NCBI GenBank assembly: GCA_027037705.1
Contig: JALVYZ010000018.1
Location: 1-5,343, forward strand
Direction of reading: 5' to 3'
DNA: 5,343 nt
Source: a bacterium
GTDB taxonomy: Bacteria > DYJV01 > JALVYZ01
In this document: piece by piece, positions 1-4,309 of the stretch
Numbering within the stretch: position 1 is the first letter of the stretch
Layout of the letters: each line of letters opens with the position of its first letter
Notes under the pieces: model-generated
What the model was told of the DNA's origin: nothing
Database searches by the model: none
What the model saw: the letters and a program-made list of their open reading frames with translations, nothing else
Program-made: the position numbers and the translations under genes

Positions 1-1494
1 AATCCTGCAATTCAGGAAATGAACAAAAAATGTGCTATGTGCCATTTAAAAGAAAATAAGTCTCTTGTATTTCAATGGGAAAATTCTCCTCATGCTGCTG
101 CAAAAGAAGGACCTGTCGGTTGTTATACATGTCATGCTGCTTCTAAAAATGATCCTTATGGTTACAAACATGAAGGAGCATTTATTAAAACTATAATTAC
201 TCCTAAAGATTGTGCTTACTGTCATGAAAGAGAAACTAAGGAAATGATGAATTCTCATCATGCAACTGCTGGTCAAATTTTAGCCTCTTTAGATAATGTT
301 CTTGGAGAAGTAGTATGTAGTATGCCAGATACTAAAGCTGATGCAGTAAATGGATGTTGGCAATGTCATGGTTCAGTTATAAAAATTTCAAAAGATAAGA
401 ATGGAAAACCTTTAAAGAATCAAATTGGTGCAATTCAACTTGATTACAAAACCTGGCCAAATTCAGGAATTGGGAGATTAAATCCTGATGGTACAAAAGG
501 CACATGTAATGCTTGTCACTCAAAACATTCATTTAGGGCAAGTATGGCAAGACAACCTGAAAATTGCGGGAAATGCCATTTAGGTCCAGACCATCCACAA
601 AAAGAAATTTATGAAGAGTCAAAACATGGAATCGCATATTACACAACTATTCGTGGACCAGGAATGAATGGAATGGATATATTAAAAACTGGAACATGGG
701 TACTTGGAAAAGATTATTATTATGCACCAACCTGTTCAACATGCCATATGGGCGCTTATGTAAAACCTAATGGCTCAGTTGCACAAAATACTCATAATGT
801 TGGTGATAGAATTTCATGGAACTTAAGAGCTCCTATTTCAATTAAATTAAACAGAGTAATTTTTGAAGATGGGACTGTTACAGATATTCCAGGAGAATAT
901 CCACCTCAACCTGGCCAAACTGCTAAATATAAAGATTTTGAAGTAGTAAATGGAAAATGGAAAAAAGTAATTAAAACAAAAAGAATCAAGAAAGTTATTT
1001 CATGGAAGCAAAGAAGAAAGAATATGCAGGGGGTATGTAAATCATGTCATAGTGTTCAAAAAATAGAAAATTTCTACAAATACTTTGATGATTTTGTTTA
1101 TACCTACAACAACAAATTTGCAAAACCTGCAAAAAAACTTTGGGCAATGATGAAAAAAGATGGATTAGTAAAAGGTTCTTTATTCCATTCAAAAGCTGGA
1201 TGGGCATGGTGGGAAATCTGGCATCACCAGGGAAGAAGAGCTCGTCATGGAGCATCAATGATGGGACCAGACTATGCTCACTGGCATGGATTGTATGATG
1301 TTGCAAAGGTATTCTACTTTGAATATCTACCTGAAATTATTAAACTTGCTAAAGAACACGGAAAATATGAAAAGTATAAGAAAGTTATTGATGAATTACT
1401 CAATAAACCAGAACATAAATGGAGATTAAAGGGTTTCGGAGAAGAAATAGAAAAAATGATTAAAGAGGAGCAGAAATTAAGATATGGTCAGTAA
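1..1494 (+). CDS. HAO-like octaheme cytochrome c, 5'-truncated
   Basis: This is a periplasmic-type multiheme enzyme of the hydroxylamine oxidoreductase family. Known members oxidise hydroxylamine or hydrazine, or work in reverse to reduce nitrite and hydroxylamine. The frame is open from base 1, so the first Met (base 19) is probably internal and the signal peptide lies upstream. Counting from that Met, eight CxxCH sites start at Cys 5, 35, 65, 113, 163, 183, 239 and 340. The long gap before the eighth site and the histidine-rich C-terminal block (residues 401-423, HHQGRRARHG then HWHG) fit the family. The fourth site, CWQCHG, is the expected catalytic heme (P460 in true HAO). Family enzymes carry a tyrosine near the C-terminus only if they make the P460 crosslink. 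Y419 and Y426 are candidates, but I cannot align them, so the reaction direction is open. Cys100 is the only non-heme cysteine. There is no C-terminal membrane segment. The stop overlaps the next gene by 11 nt. An upstream quinol-dehydrogenase partner would be outside the window. Confidence 0.92.
   Translation, partial: NPAIQEMNKKCAMCHLKENKSLVFQWENSPHAAAKEGPVGCYTCHAASKNDPYGYKHEGAFIKTIITPKDCAYCHERETKEMMNSHHATAGQILASLDNVLGEVVCSMPDTKADAVNGCWQCHGSVIKISKDKNGKPLKNQIGAIQLDYKTWPNSGIGRLNPDGTKGTCNACHSKHSFRASMARQPENCGKCHLGPDHPQKEIYEESKHGIAYYTTIRGPGMNGMDILKTGTWVLGKDYYYAPTCSTCHMGAYVKPNGSVAQNTHNVGDRISWNLRAPISIKLNRVIFEDGTVTDIPGEYPPQPGQTAKYKDFEVVNGKWKKVIKTKRIKKVISWKQRRKNMQGVCKSCHSVQKIENFYKYFDDFVYTYNNKFAKPAKKLWAMMKKDGLVKGSLFHSKAGWAWWEIWHHQGRRARHGASMMGPDYAHWHGLYDVAKVFYFEYLPEIIKLAKEHGKYEKYKKVIDELLNKPEHKWRLKGFGEEIEKMIKEEQKLRYGQ
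1465..1470 (+). promoter_or_regulatory. Shine-Dalgarno GAGGAG for the exported protein gene
   Basis: GAGGAG lies within the last codons of the octaheme cytochrome gene, 13 nt before the ATG at 1484. That spacing is longer than the usual 5-9 nt. No other in-frame ATG, GTG or TTG lies near, so this site and the signal peptide together support the 1484 start. The 11-nt overlap suggests ribosomes finishing the cytochrome may re-initiate here. Confidence 0.5.
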
Positions 1495-2053
1495 AAATTT
1501 TAACTCTAAAATTGCGGGGATTCTCCTCCCCGCTTTTATTTTTTTAATATTTCTAAAAACATTACATGCTGATATTTTAGATAATGTTAGAAAACTAAAA
1601 ATTGGGATAAATGGATATTATATTGGTTATAAGCTAAAAAATTATAAAAAACTAACAAAGATAAATAAAGTATATAAAGGGACAGAAAAATATAAAGACA
1701 AAAATATTTATATTACTGTTAGTAAAAATGAGAAGATAATTTTAGGGATTTACAAAAAAATTGATAATGCTACATATGATGATTTAAAAAAAACAATTTC
1801 CTTTTTAATGATAAATTTTGGAGAACCTACAATTGAAGCTCATGGTAAAAATATCTACTGGTTCTATTCTGAAAAAGGTAAAATTTCAAATAAAGAATTT
1901 TTAGAAGCAAGAAAAAAAAATAAAATTAAAAAGCCTATATTAATGGTAAAATTTAATTCAAATAAATTTATTTCTTCAAATTCAAATAAAATAAAATTCT
2001 ACTTTATAATATATTCTGAACCATTAATAAAAAAATTACTTAATAAAAATTGA
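1484..2053 (+). CDS. Unrecognised exported basic protein
   Basis: I do not recognise this 189-residue protein. The N-terminus looks like a Sec signal peptide: basic start (K4, K9), hydrophobic core about residues 10-24, and a likely cut after LHA (residue 29). The mature part has no cysteine and no heme motif, and is very rich in lysine, isoleucine and asparagine, so it should be basic. Alternating hydrophobic strands (about 76-90) precede a helix-like stretch (97-111), then FGEP (112-115) and an aromatic strand around IYWFY (124-128), which suggests a small alpha/beta domain. The start at 1484 is the only usable one: the next Met is at residue 109. Part of the hydrophobic core is encoded by an intrinsic terminator and its T-tract. 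T-runs encode Phe and Ile anyway, so the signal peptide could be partly fortuitous. The cleavage-like site and the long open frame argue that it is real. Lying between the cytochrome and a periplasmic heme sensor, it could be an accessory or maturation protein; this is inference. Confidence 0.7.
   Translation: MVSKNFNSKIAGILLPAFIFLIFLKTLHADILDNVRKLKIGINGYYIGYKLKNYKKLTKINKVYKGTEKYKDKNIYITVSKNEKIILGIYKKIDNATYDDLKKTISFLMINFGEPTIEAHGKNIYWFYSEKGKISNKEFLEARKKNKIKKPILMVKFNSNKFISSNSNKIKFYFIIYSEPLIKKLLNKN
1514..1545 (+). terminator. Intrinsic terminator inside the signal-peptide coding region
   Basis: A perfect 7-bp stem, GCGGGGA (1514-1520) with TCCCCGC (1527-1533), closes a 6-nt loop (TTCTCC). A T-rich tract with one A follows at once (1534-1545). 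A stem this GC-rich stands out sharply in such AT-rich DNA. It begins 19 bp after the octaheme cytochrome stop, the expected place for that gene's terminator. However, it lies inside the next open frame, from codon 11 onward. It may partly end transcription after the cytochrome so that less mRNA reaches downstream genes, and ribosomes entering the overlapping gene could disrupt it. Confidence 0.8.
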
Positions 2054-2078
2054 CAACCTTTTAATTTTTCTTTACTAA
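2050..2078 (+). promoter_or_regulatory. Candidate sigma-70-type promoter of the kinase gene, possibly leaderless
   Basis: A perfect TTGACA -35 box (2050-2055) overlaps the stop codon of the preceding gene. At a 17-bp spacer comes TACTAA (2073-2078), a weak -10. TAAAAT at 2076-2081 is a better -10 but with a 20-bp spacer. With the 17-bp choice, transcription would start about 2085-2086, on the ATG itself. No purine-rich Shine-Dalgarno lies before that ATG; the 20 bases upstream are mostly T. -10-like strings are common in AT-rich DNA, so the -35 box and the geometry carry the evidence. Confidence 0.5.
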
Positions 2079-2085
2079 AATTTAT

Positions 2086-3666
2086 ATGAAGTCTCTTAAT
2101 CAAAAATATCTTTTGGCTGTTTCTATTATAATTACAATCATTTTAGGTTCTATTTTTTCTTTTTTCTATTTTACAATTAAAAGAATGATTTTAAATCAAG
2201 TTTATCAAAAAGCTTCAGTCGTTGCAGATCAGGTGATTATTTTAAGAAAATGGGTTGCTGATATGCATGGTGTATTTGTTGTTCAAAGACCTGGAATAGA
2301 ACCTAATAGATTTTTACCTTATCCAATTTTAAATTGTGGAGAAATTACACTTGTTTTAAGAAATCCTGCACTCATTACAAAGGAACTCTCTGAAATGACA
2401 AAAAAATTAAAGTCATACTATTTTAAATTAACAAGTGATAAAGTTATAAATCCAAAAAATTCACCTGATGATATAGAGAAAAAAGCCCTTAATTTATTTA
2501 AAACCCAAAAATATAAGGAATTCAAAATAATAGAGCAGAAAGGAGATAAAAGGTTTCTAAGATTAATTAAACCACTATATATAAAAGATAGCTGTCTTAC
2601 ATGTCATATTTATCAGGGCTACCATGTTGGACAATTAAGAGGTGCTTTAAGTATTTTTGTCCCGATGGATAATGTTTATGAAGATCTTTCTAAAATAAAA
2701 AAGATATTCTTTTTTGGTGGAATTTTTATAGTTATATTAACTACTTTTATAATTTTTATTATTAACTATTACTTAACTATTAAACCAATAACATCATTAA
2801 CATCCTCTATAAAAAATTTTTCTCAAAAATTAGATATAAATTTTAAACCATCTAATAGAAAAGATGAAATTGGTACTCTTGAAAAAAGTTTTTTTGAAAT
2901 GGCAAATAAAATCAAAAATAATTATGAAATAATGCAAAAAGAAATAGAAAAAGCCACTGAAGAATTAAAAAGAAAAGATAAAATAAAAACAGATTTTATA
3001 GCAACAATGTCCCATGAACTAAGAACTCCATTGACAACAATTCAAGGTGGGATTGAATATCTATTTAAAGTTATCAAGAAAAAGGAAAATATTGAATTTA
3101 TAAAAATAATTGATAAAAATTTAAAAAATTTGATTTTAATGGTTAACAACTTAATAGATATTGCAAGAATCGAACTTGGAAAATTAGATTTAGAACTCAC
3201 AGAAGTTAATTTAAAAGAATTACTTGAAGAAGTAATACTTTTTTTTAAAGGATTCGCATATGAAAAAAATATAAAAATTATAAAAAAAAATTTTAATGAT
3301 TATTATGTTAAAATTGATAGAAGAAGGATTAATCAGGTTTTAATAAATGTTTTACACAATGCTATTAAATATTCTCCTGAAGGTGAAAAAATCGAAATTT
3401 CCATGACTAAAAAAGATAACTTCATTAAAATCTCAATAATTAATAAAGTTAAAAATAGAATATTAAAAAATGATTTAAATAAATTTTTCATTAAATATAA
3501 ATACTTATCTTCTGGAAAAGAGAAAGGAAGTGGACTTGGATTAGCTATTGCAAAAGCTATAATGGAAGCTCATAATGGCAAAATTAACATAAATTTAATT
3601 GAAGATAAAAAAATAGAAATAACTTTATATTTTAAGGCAAGCAATGATGAAAATATTAATAGTTGA
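2086..3666 (+). CDS. Heme-binding (DUF3365/Tll0287-like) sensor histidine kinase
   Basis: This 526-residue membrane sensor kinase should respond to a periplasmic signal and phosphorylate the overlapping regulator. Transmembrane segment 1 is about residues 9-30. A periplasmic DUF3365-type domain follows (about 40-195) with RKWVADMHGVF (54-64), RNPALITKELSE (92-103) and a single c-type heme site CLTCH (170-174). Transmembrane segment 2 is about 206-228, then a HAMP linker (P234; DEIGTLE at 260-266), a coiled coil (about 275-303), and a HisKA domain with the phosphoacceptor H310 in SHELRTP. In the ATPase domain the N box is present (N421, N425) and so is the G2 box GSGLGLA (481-487). The G1 box, normally DxGxG, reads NKVKN (453-457): the aspartate and both glycines are missing, so ATP binding may be weak. 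Known Tll0287-type hemes have unusual axial ligands including a cysteine; C84 is the only cysteine here outside CxxCH. The ligand sensed is unknown; redox state, NO or another nitrogen oxide are reasonable guesses next to an HAO-like enzyme. The gene has no Shine-Dalgarno. Confidence 0.9.
   Translation: MKSLNQKYLLAVSIIITIILGSIFSFFYFTIKRMILNQVYQKASVVADQVIILRKWVADMHGVFVVQRPGIEPNRFLPYPILNCGEITLVLRNPALITKELSEMTKKLKSYYFKLTSDKVINPKNSPDDIEKKALNLFKTQKYKEFKIIEQKGDKRFLRLIKPLYIKDSCLTCHIYQGYHVGQLRGALSIFVPMDNVYEDLSKIKKIFFFGGIFIVILTTFIIFIINYYLTIKPITSLTSSIKNFSQKLDINFKPSNRKDEIGTLEKSFFEMANKIKNNYEIMQKEIEKATEELKRKDKIKTDFIATMSHELRTPLTTIQGGIEYLFKVIKKKENIEFIKIIDKNLKNLILMVNNLIDIARIELGKLDLELTEVNLKELLEEVILFFKGFAYEKNIKIIKKNFNDYYVKIDRRRINQVLINVLHNAIKYSPEGEKIEISMTKKDNFIKISIINKVKNRILKNDLNKFFIKYKYLSSGKEKGSGLGLAIAKAIMEAHNGKININLIEDKKIEITLYFKASNDENINS
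3634..3637 (+). promoter_or_regulatory. Shine-Dalgarno AAGG for the response regulator
   Basis: AAGG lies inside the end of the kinase gene, 6 nt before the ATG at 3644 and 9 nt before the ATG at 3647. It fits either start. The second Met gives the usual MKILIVDDD beginning of OmpR-family regulators, so 3647 is at least as likely. Confidence 0.45.
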
Positions 3667-4309
3667 TGATGATAAAGATATTTTAAAAGTATTAGAAGCT
3701 AATTTAAAATTTGAAAATTACGATGTTCTTACTGCTGAAAATGGTTTTGAAGCTTTTGAAAAGGCAAAAAAAGAAAATCCTGATTTAATTATTCTTGATT
3801 TAAATCTCCCTGATATTGATGGAATTCAAGTTTGTCATAAATTAAGAGAAATTGAGATAGATATTCCTATTATCATGCTTACTGCAAGGGACACTGTATC
3901 TGATAAAATTTTAGGCTTAGAGTGTGGGGCAGATGATTACATCGTAAAACCTTTTAATTTTCTTGAATTACACGCAAGAATAAAGAGTTGTTTAAGAAGA
4001 GCTAAAAAAGAAATTAATAATAAAATTTTAAAATTTAAATCATTAACAATATACCCTGATAGGCAAGAAATTAAACATGACGGAAAAAAAATTAATTTTA
4101 CTAAAACTGAGTATAATTTATTTATGTTTCTTTTTAAAAATGTTGGTAAAATTTGCACCAGAAAAGATATAAAAAAGGCATTATGGAAAAATAAAGAAAT
4201 TTATGATTGGTCAAGAACTATTGATATACATATAAATCATCTCAGAAAAAAACTTCCTGAAGATATAAAAATTAACACTATTAAAGGGAGTGGCTATATT
4301 TTAGAATAA
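3644..4309 (+). CDS. OmpR/PhoB-family response regulator
   Basis: This 221-residue transcription factor is the evident partner of the kinase it overlaps by 23 nt. The receiver domain (about residues 3-118) has the acidic cluster D8-D10, phosphoacceptor D52 in LDLNLPD, the switch threonine T80 in MLTAR, and K102 in the VKPF motif. All key residues are present. The C-terminal winged-helix DNA-binding domain (about 127-221) has the family's usual parts: LTIYPDRQEI, the FTKTEYNLF helix, the recognition helix region RTIDIHINHLRKKL (191-204), and the wing with IKGSGYIL. Two adjacent Met codons leave the start open by one residue; numbering here is from 3644. The likely targets are in this cluster, perhaps the octaheme cytochrome gene or the two candidate promoters. 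I see no convincing direct-repeat operator in the short gaps. Confidence 0.95.
   Translation: MMKILIVDDDKDILKVLEANLKFENYDVLTAENGFEAFEKAKKENPDLIILDLNLPDIDGIQVCHKLREIEIDIPIIMLTARDTVSDKILGLECGADDYIVKPFNFLELHARIKSCLRRAKKEINNKILKFKSLTIYPDRQEIKHDGKKINFTKTEYNLFMFLFKNVGKICTRKDIKKALWKNKEIYDWSRTIDIHINHLRKKLPEDIKINTIKGSGYILE

What the first reader, a model, noticed from the sequence alone, without database searches (positions are those of the whole stretch)
1484..1575. Strong intrinsic terminator embedded in the signal-peptide codons of the next gene
The 7-bp GC stem plus T-tract at 1514-1545 begins 19 bp past the octaheme cytochrome stop. The overlapping gene, which starts at 1484, must be read through it, and its hydrophobic core (LLP, then Phe/Ile/Leu) is written by the loop, stem and T-tract. 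Two readings are possible. It may be a dual-use element in which translation re-initiating at the 11-nt overlap melts the hairpin and lets mRNA reach the next gene, coupling its expression to cytochrome translation. Or it is a plain terminator that happens to fall in an open frame, with a different real start for the downstream gene.
Basis: partly seen in the sequence, partly recalled or inferred. Interest (0 to 1): 0.62.

Follow-up and report, generated by a model that had tools for sequence, protein, structure and literature searches.

The report
Terminator inside next gene's start codons
A standard "stop transcribing" signal after a cytochrome gene lies inside the first codons of the next gene and is kept at the same place in the only known relative, so it probably limits how much of the next protein is made, by a known kind of mechanism that no RNA data yet test.

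Summary
A 7-bp GC stem with T-tract (1514-1545) starts 19 nt after the octaheme cytochrome stop and lies in codons 11-21 of the next ORF (1484-2053). It is far beyond chance and of the genome's usual terminator type. Only one other genome of this phylum is held (G001, same order). There the hairpin, the overlapping ATG and an open frame through the hairpin are all kept, although spacer and loop lengths differ (summed change 15 nt, in frame). Neither genome has an ATG/GTG/TTG between the hairpin and the signal-peptide core, so a plain terminator with a later start is unlikely. In G001, however, the hydrophobic core lies downstream of the hairpin, so "hairpin writes the signal peptide" is particular to the window. 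Best reading: an intra-operon intrinsic terminator that ends most cytochrome mRNA and lets a minority reach a small exported protein of unknown function. Melting by translation is possible but not favoured for the window's genome, whose terminators lie a median 7 nt after stop codons, a published proxy for uncoupled transcription. In G001 (hairpin 4-6 nt after the stop) ribosome control is more plausible. No RNA data were available.

The parts
1..1494 (+). 3' part of an octaheme c-type cytochrome gene (8 CxxCH in the part held); 81% identical to the G001 ortholog
   Evidence: relatives of known structure are the PDB chain 4qo5_A ('hypothetical multiheme protein') and hydroxylamine-oxidoreductase-like proteins
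1484..2053 (+). small gene for a 189-aa protein with an N-terminal signal-peptide-like stretch; mature part conserved in G001 (54%), no Pfam family
1484..1494 (+). 11-nt overlap: ATG of the small gene within the last codons (Y-G-Q-stop) of the cytochrome; ATG also present in G001, though the cytochrome codons TAT GGN force it
1514..1533 (+). terminator hairpin, 7 bp (6 GC), 6-nt loop; codons 11-17 of the small gene
1534..1545 (+). T-tract TTTTATTTTTTT (11 of 12 T), predicted RNA 3' end at its end; encodes the middle of the hydrophobic stretch
1514..1557 (+). codons 11-24, the hydrophobic core of the predicted signal peptide (AGILLPAFIFLIFL), cleavage expected after LHA (codon 29)
   Evidence: hydropathy only; no signal-peptide predictor was available

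Best explanation
It is an ordinary-looking intrinsic terminator, kept at the end of an octaheme-cytochrome operon, that is overlapped by the first codons of the next gene. RNA polymerase leaving the cytochrome gene stops at the T-tract (about 1541-1545) most of the time, so the main mRNA ends there. A minority of polymerases read through and transcribe the small exported-protein gene, which is translated from the ATG at 1484, probably by ribosomes re-initiating in the 11-nt overlap. Any transcript that carries this start codon must cross the hairpin, so the terminator bears on the small gene whatever the promoter. The result would be a high ratio of cytochrome to small protein. Shown: hairpin, overlap, open frame, no later canonical start, and all of these in the one relative. 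Inferred: that it terminates, that it is leaky, the start site, and the purpose (stoichiometry).
For: Strong hairpin plus T-tract of the genome's usual terminator type. Kept at the homologous place in G001 with six identical pairs, one pair changed on both sides, two extra pairs, and different spacer and loop. Overlapping ATG and open frame kept in both; length changes of -13 and -2 nt sum to a multiple of 3. No ATG/GTG/TTG between hairpin and signal-peptide core in either genome. Mature protein conserved at 54%, so the gene is real. Terminators lie a median 7 nt after stops in this genome, a proxy for transcription that outruns ribosomes, so translation should not be needed or able to silence it. 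Terminators in the first 100 bp of a coding region work efficiently in E. coli (PMC4824070).
Against: No RNA data; leakiness and the start site are not shown. Only two genomes. Frame openness alone is weak (simulated chance 0.22 in the window, 0.054 in G001, or 0.44 if G001 starts at an ATA). The Shine-Dalgarno-like AGAGGAG upstream of 1484 is 13 nt away and becomes GATGAG in G001. Terminated mRNA would carry a start codon without a stop. The published internal terminators of clostridial ABC operons have weaker U-tracts than canonical ones (PMC9045158); this one does not.
Confidence: 0.58

Rival explanations
1. Translation-dependent terminator. A ribosome finishing the cytochrome, or re-initiating at 1484 and moving into codons 11-17, covers the hairpin before it folds, so the small gene is transcribed in step with cytochrome translation.
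For: The arrangement fits: stop codon 19 nt (window) or 4-6 nt (G001) before the stem, and translated codons across it. In E. coli a stop codon 5 bp before a terminator cut its efficiency from about 90% to under 10%, and at 17-18 bp efficiency was 0.12 or 0.8 depending on sequence (PMC4824070). Longer leader peptides silence the pil1 terminator of Streptococcus gallolyticus (PMC3894217). G001's terminators are not stop-proximal in general (median 28 nt), so coupling is more plausible there.
Against: G000 shows stop-proximal terminators (median 7 nt, 11 of 18 within 12 nt), a proxy for uncoupled transcription; both genomes are purine-rich in coding strands and have Rho, as runaway species do. 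A ribosome parked at the stop or at ATG 1484 does not reach 1514 if about 10 nt downstream is covered. Terminators early in an ORF escaped repression in E. coli.
Confidence: 0.2
2. Plain terminator that happens to lie in an open frame; the small gene starts after it from a non-canonical codon (ATA/ATT) and its own promoter, or is not expressed from 1484.
For: In G001 an in-frame ATA (codon 20) would give a compact signal peptide MKQVKQIFIFFILFFTSF. Chance openness up to that codon is 0.44. The overlapping ATG is forced by the cytochrome's codons.
Against: In the window no start after the hairpin leaves a usable signal peptide: what remains of the hydrophobic stretch is about six residues. ATT as a start has about 0.3% of ATG efficiency in E. 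coli (cited in PMC10666635).
Confidence: 0.13
3. The hairpin mainly protects the 3' end of cytochrome mRNA (segmental mRNA stability) and termination or processing is secondary.
For: A GC hairpin in a very AT-rich message at the end of a gene; segmental stability around stem-loops is known elsewhere (own knowledge: puf operon of Rhodobacter), and folding energy of internal terminators affected upstream transcript stability in R. cellulolyticum (PMC9045158).
Against: A T-tract directly after the stem in both genomes is not needed for this role and marks a terminator.
Confidence: 0.09

Closest known systems
Internal intrinsic terminators that set gene ratios inside operons, e.g. ABC importers of Ruminiclostridium cellulolyticum (PMC9045158)
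   Same: A hairpin plus U-tract between co-directional genes of one operon, expected to give much of the upstream and little of the downstream transcript.
   Different: There the stem-loops lie in intergenic regions, with weaker U-tracts and longer stems; here the hairpin is canonical and lies in the first codons of the downstream gene. Function shown there, inferred here.
frd terminator / ampC attenuator of Escherichia coli and the nlpD1-penA terminator/attenuator (both described in PMC6045580)
   Same: The terminator of an upstream gene or operon doubles as the attenuator of the next gene.
   Different: Those are described as attenuators ahead of the regulated gene; here the terminator lies inside its codons.
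Translation-controlled terminators in leader ORFs: pil1 of Streptococcus gallolyticus (PMC3894217) and pyrBI (described in PMC4824070)
   Same: A terminator that lies in, or just after, a translated frame, so that ribosomes can silence it.
   Different: There the ORF is a regulatory leader peptide; here it is the regulated exported protein itself. Dependence on translation is shown there and untested here.
ORF-internal 3' ends mapped by Term-seq (title and abstract of PMC7815308)
   Same: RNA 3' ends inside ORFs as evidence of premature termination.
   Different: Here the ORF-internal site is also the end of the upstream gene, and is predicted from sequence only.

Membership tests
Intrinsic (Rho-independent) terminator | GC-rich hairpin directly followed by a U-tract | tested here: met
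   same type recurs in the genome
Intrinsic (Rho-independent) terminator | RNA 3' ends at the U-tract without Rho | not testable with these tools
   no RNA data
Internal terminator setting operon stoichiometry | Lies between co-directional genes of one operon and is conserved there | tested here: met
   conserved in the one relative. That the two genes share a transcript is inferred from the overlap
Internal terminator setting operon stoichiometry | Partial read-through giving unequal transcript levels | not testable with these tools
   no RNA data
Translation-controlled attenuator (pil1, pyrBI type) | Terminator overlapped by, or just after, a translated frame | tested here: met
   open frame and overlapping ATG in both genomes, no later canonical start; translation itself inferred
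Translation-controlled attenuator (pil1, pyrBI type) | Ribosome close enough to RNA polymerase to cover the hairpin | tested here: inconclusive
   proxy only: stop-to-terminator median 7 nt in G000 argues against, 28 nt in G001 allows it
Translation-controlled attenuator (pil1, pyrBI type) | Read-through changes with translation | not testable with these tools
   needs a reporter assay
Termination-reinitiation gene pair | Short overlap of stop and start codons | tested here: met
   11-nt overlap, a less common and probably weaker class than -4/-1 overlaps (PMC10666635)

The most novel reading that the evidence does not exclude
Read-through into the small gene is set by whether a ribosome has just finished the cytochrome: the hairpin senses cytochrome translation from inside the coding start of the regulated gene, and the two genomes, which differ in how close terminators lie to stop codons, have tuned the stop-to-hairpin distance (19 versus 4-6 nt) differently.
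Probability: 0.15. Interest if true: 0.55.

Novelty: new variant of a known kind. Interest (0 to 1): 0.33.

Why it matters
It is a natural case where one short stretch is constrained both as a terminator and as N-terminal codons, kept in two families of a little-known phylum. It offers a clean reporter test of whether a terminator at the very start of a coding sequence is a fixed ratio-setter or is controlled by translation. It also shows that a start codon should not be discarded merely because a terminator follows it.

Tried and rejected
More relatives were sought with the small protein's profile in 386 genomes and with peptide patterns in the genome collection; only G001 was found. The octaheme cytochromes of ten other lineages (L106-L115) are followed by other sequence, in two cases (L111, L115) with ordinary intergenic terminator-like hairpins, and none by this small gene, so they cannot test the element. 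Viral contigs gave no cytochrome relative. No Rfam family matches the window. AlphaFold on a two-row alignment was poor (mean pLDDT 48), so no fold search was made and the small protein's function stays unknown. Survey hits inside ORFs: L074 is a miscalled start (a later ATG follows AGGAGG), L083 a weak stem in real coding sequence (score 8.6), L088 overlaps the last codons of its gene. Frameshifting from the cytochrome into the small frame was considered and dropped: an in-frame TAA lies just upstream of 1484 and nothing suggests a slip site. The tmRNA search found one in G001 and none above the cut-off in G000, which is uninformative in a gapped assembly.

Full report
Observation. The window holds the 3' part of an octaheme cytochrome gene (1-1494), a 189-residue ORF that begins 11 nt before the cytochrome stop codon ends (1484-2053), then a histidine kinase, a response regulator, a small heme-motif protein and an ion channel. 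A 7-bp hairpin (1514-1533) and a T-tract (1534-1545) lie 19 nt after the cytochrome stop and in codons 11-21 of the small ORF. The fold is -14.3 kcal/mol, z -4.2; no dinucleotide shuffle of the window (0 of 200) gives a comparable stem plus T-tract under a strict definition. The looser scan expects 1.2 hits by chance.

What the hairpin is. The same stem, GCGGGG(N3-8)CCCCGC, occurs 5 times in the window's genome (G000) and 3 times in its relative G001, and never in the reversed control. Most copies carry T-runs, some on both sides. In samples of 383 kb and 304 kb, nearly all strong terminators lie just after a stop codon or between genes. So this is the genome's ordinary terminator type. What is unusual is its place: in the sampled contigs this locus, in both genomes, is the only one where a terminator of that strength sits in the first codons of an ORF with no later canonical start. 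L074 is a miscalled start, and L083 a much weaker stem.

The relative. Only one other genome of this phylum is held: G001, record DYJV01000006.1, titled 'Candidatus Methylomirabilis sp.' with an isolate name beginning SulCav. There an operon of a multiheme cytochrome, an iron-sulfur protein, an NrfD-like protein and the octaheme cytochrome is followed by the small gene. The cytochromes are 81% identical, the small proteins 54% over the matched part. The DNA between them has diverged strongly, but the hairpin is kept: GCGGGGA-TTCTCC-TCCCCGC in the window, AAGCGGGGG-TGGT-CCCCCGCTT in G001. Six pairs are identical, the seventh is changed on both sides (A-U to G-C), and G001 has two further outer A-U pairs. 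The overlapping ATG is kept, though the cytochrome's last codons force it. The spacer is 13 nt shorter and the loop 2 nt shorter in G001, summing to 15, so the frame through the hairpin is kept and the 3' arm codes Pro-Ala-Phe in both.

Is the frame real? Neither genome has ATG, GTG or TTG between the hairpin and the signal-peptide core; G001's first TTG comes after the core. In the window the hydrophobic core needs the hairpin and T-tract codons. In G001 the core lies 13 codons downstream, and the hairpin codes part of a long basic N-terminal stretch. So the protein sequence written by the hairpin is not conserved while the hairpin is, which suggests that the hairpin is selected as RNA and the coding sequence accommodates it. 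Frame openness alone is weak evidence: the simulated chance is 0.22 in the window and 0.054 in G001, or 0.44 if G001 used an ATA start. The stronger point is that an exported protein has no other usable start in the window.

Mechanism. Any transcript carrying ATG 1484 must cross the hairpin, so the terminator bears on the small gene whatever the promoter. In E. coli, terminators in the first 100 bp of a coding region worked efficiently, while a terminator 5 bp after a stop codon was repressed to under 10%, and at 17-18 bp efficiency was 0.12 or 0.8 depending on sequence (PMC4824070). Whether ribosomes can matter depends on coupling. In G000 the distance from stop codon to the GC core of a terminator has a median of 7 nt (11 of 18 within 12 nt); in G001 it is 28 nt (2 of 18); Mann-Whitney p = 0.0045. 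Short distances are a published proxy for runaway transcription (PMC7858274, reporting Johnson et al. 2020). Both genomes are purine-rich in coding strands (medians 0.56 and 0.54, from crude ORF calls that include some spurious ORFs) and have Rho, which also fits runaway species (PMC13323073). For the window I therefore favour a terminator that acts regardless of translation, with the small gene fed by read-through. For G001, with the hairpin 4-6 nt after the stop, ribosome control is more plausible. This step is inference.

A consequence. mRNAs ended at the T-tract would carry ATG 1484 but no stop codon in its frame, so ribosomes starting there would run off the end. G001 has a tmRNA gene; in G000 (93% complete, 496 contigs) none reached the cut-off, which is not informative given the gaps.

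Known or new. Internal terminators that set gene ratios (PMC9045158), terminators that double as attenuators of the next gene (frd/ampC and nlpD1/penA, PMC6045580) and terminators silenced by ribosomes in leader ORFs (pil1, PMC3894217; pyrBI, described in PMC4824070) are all known. The variant here is that the terminator lies in the first codons of the regulated protein itself and is kept in two families. The literature searches made here did not turn up the same arrangement, but they cover open-licence papers only and were few.

Limits. Two genomes, no RNA, no peptide data, and no predictor of signal peptides. The small protein has no Pfam family and no trustworthy model.

Noticed in passing
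G000 and G001 contig samples (window, L005, L044-L103, L116-L155): Two genomes of one order differ in how close strong terminators lie to stop codons: median 7 nt in G000, 28 nt in G001 (n = 18 each, p = 0.0045). If it holds genome-wide, coupling of transcription and translation may differ within one order.
   Followed up: partly
window 2050-2055: A perfect TTGACA -35-like hexamer overlaps the small gene's stop codon, 30 nt before the histidine kinase ATG (2086); no good -10 at 16-18 nt (TAAAAT at 20 nt). The kinase and regulator may have their own promoter.
   Followed up: no
window 2086-4309 and L005 14040-16290: A Tll0287-domain histidine kinase with a CxxCH motif (2593-2607) and its response regulator lie beside the cytochrome operon in both genomes, downstream in the window and divergent upstream in G001; possibly a heme-based sensor that regulates the operon.
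   Followed up: no
L005 7314-13716: G001 operon: multiheme cytochrome, Fe-S protein, NrfD-like protein, octaheme cytochrome, small protein, then a second multiheme cytochrome with a weak hydrazine-dehydrogenase-family match; probably a quinone-linked octaheme reductase system.
   Followed up: partly
L006 (DYJV01000006.1): The record is titled 'Candidatus Methylomirabilis sp.' but the genome search places it with the window in a phylum of two held genomes, so the organism name in the title is doubtful.
   Followed up: no
L088 4873-4894: Another terminator of the same GCGGGG..CCCCGC type overlaps the last codons (133-140 of 146) of an ORF in G000, bidirectional with T-runs on both sides.
   Followed up: partly
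window 1496-1513: A weak A-T hairpin (AATTTTA-ACTC-TAAAATT) lies directly before the terminator stem in the window and is absent from G001.
   Followed up: no
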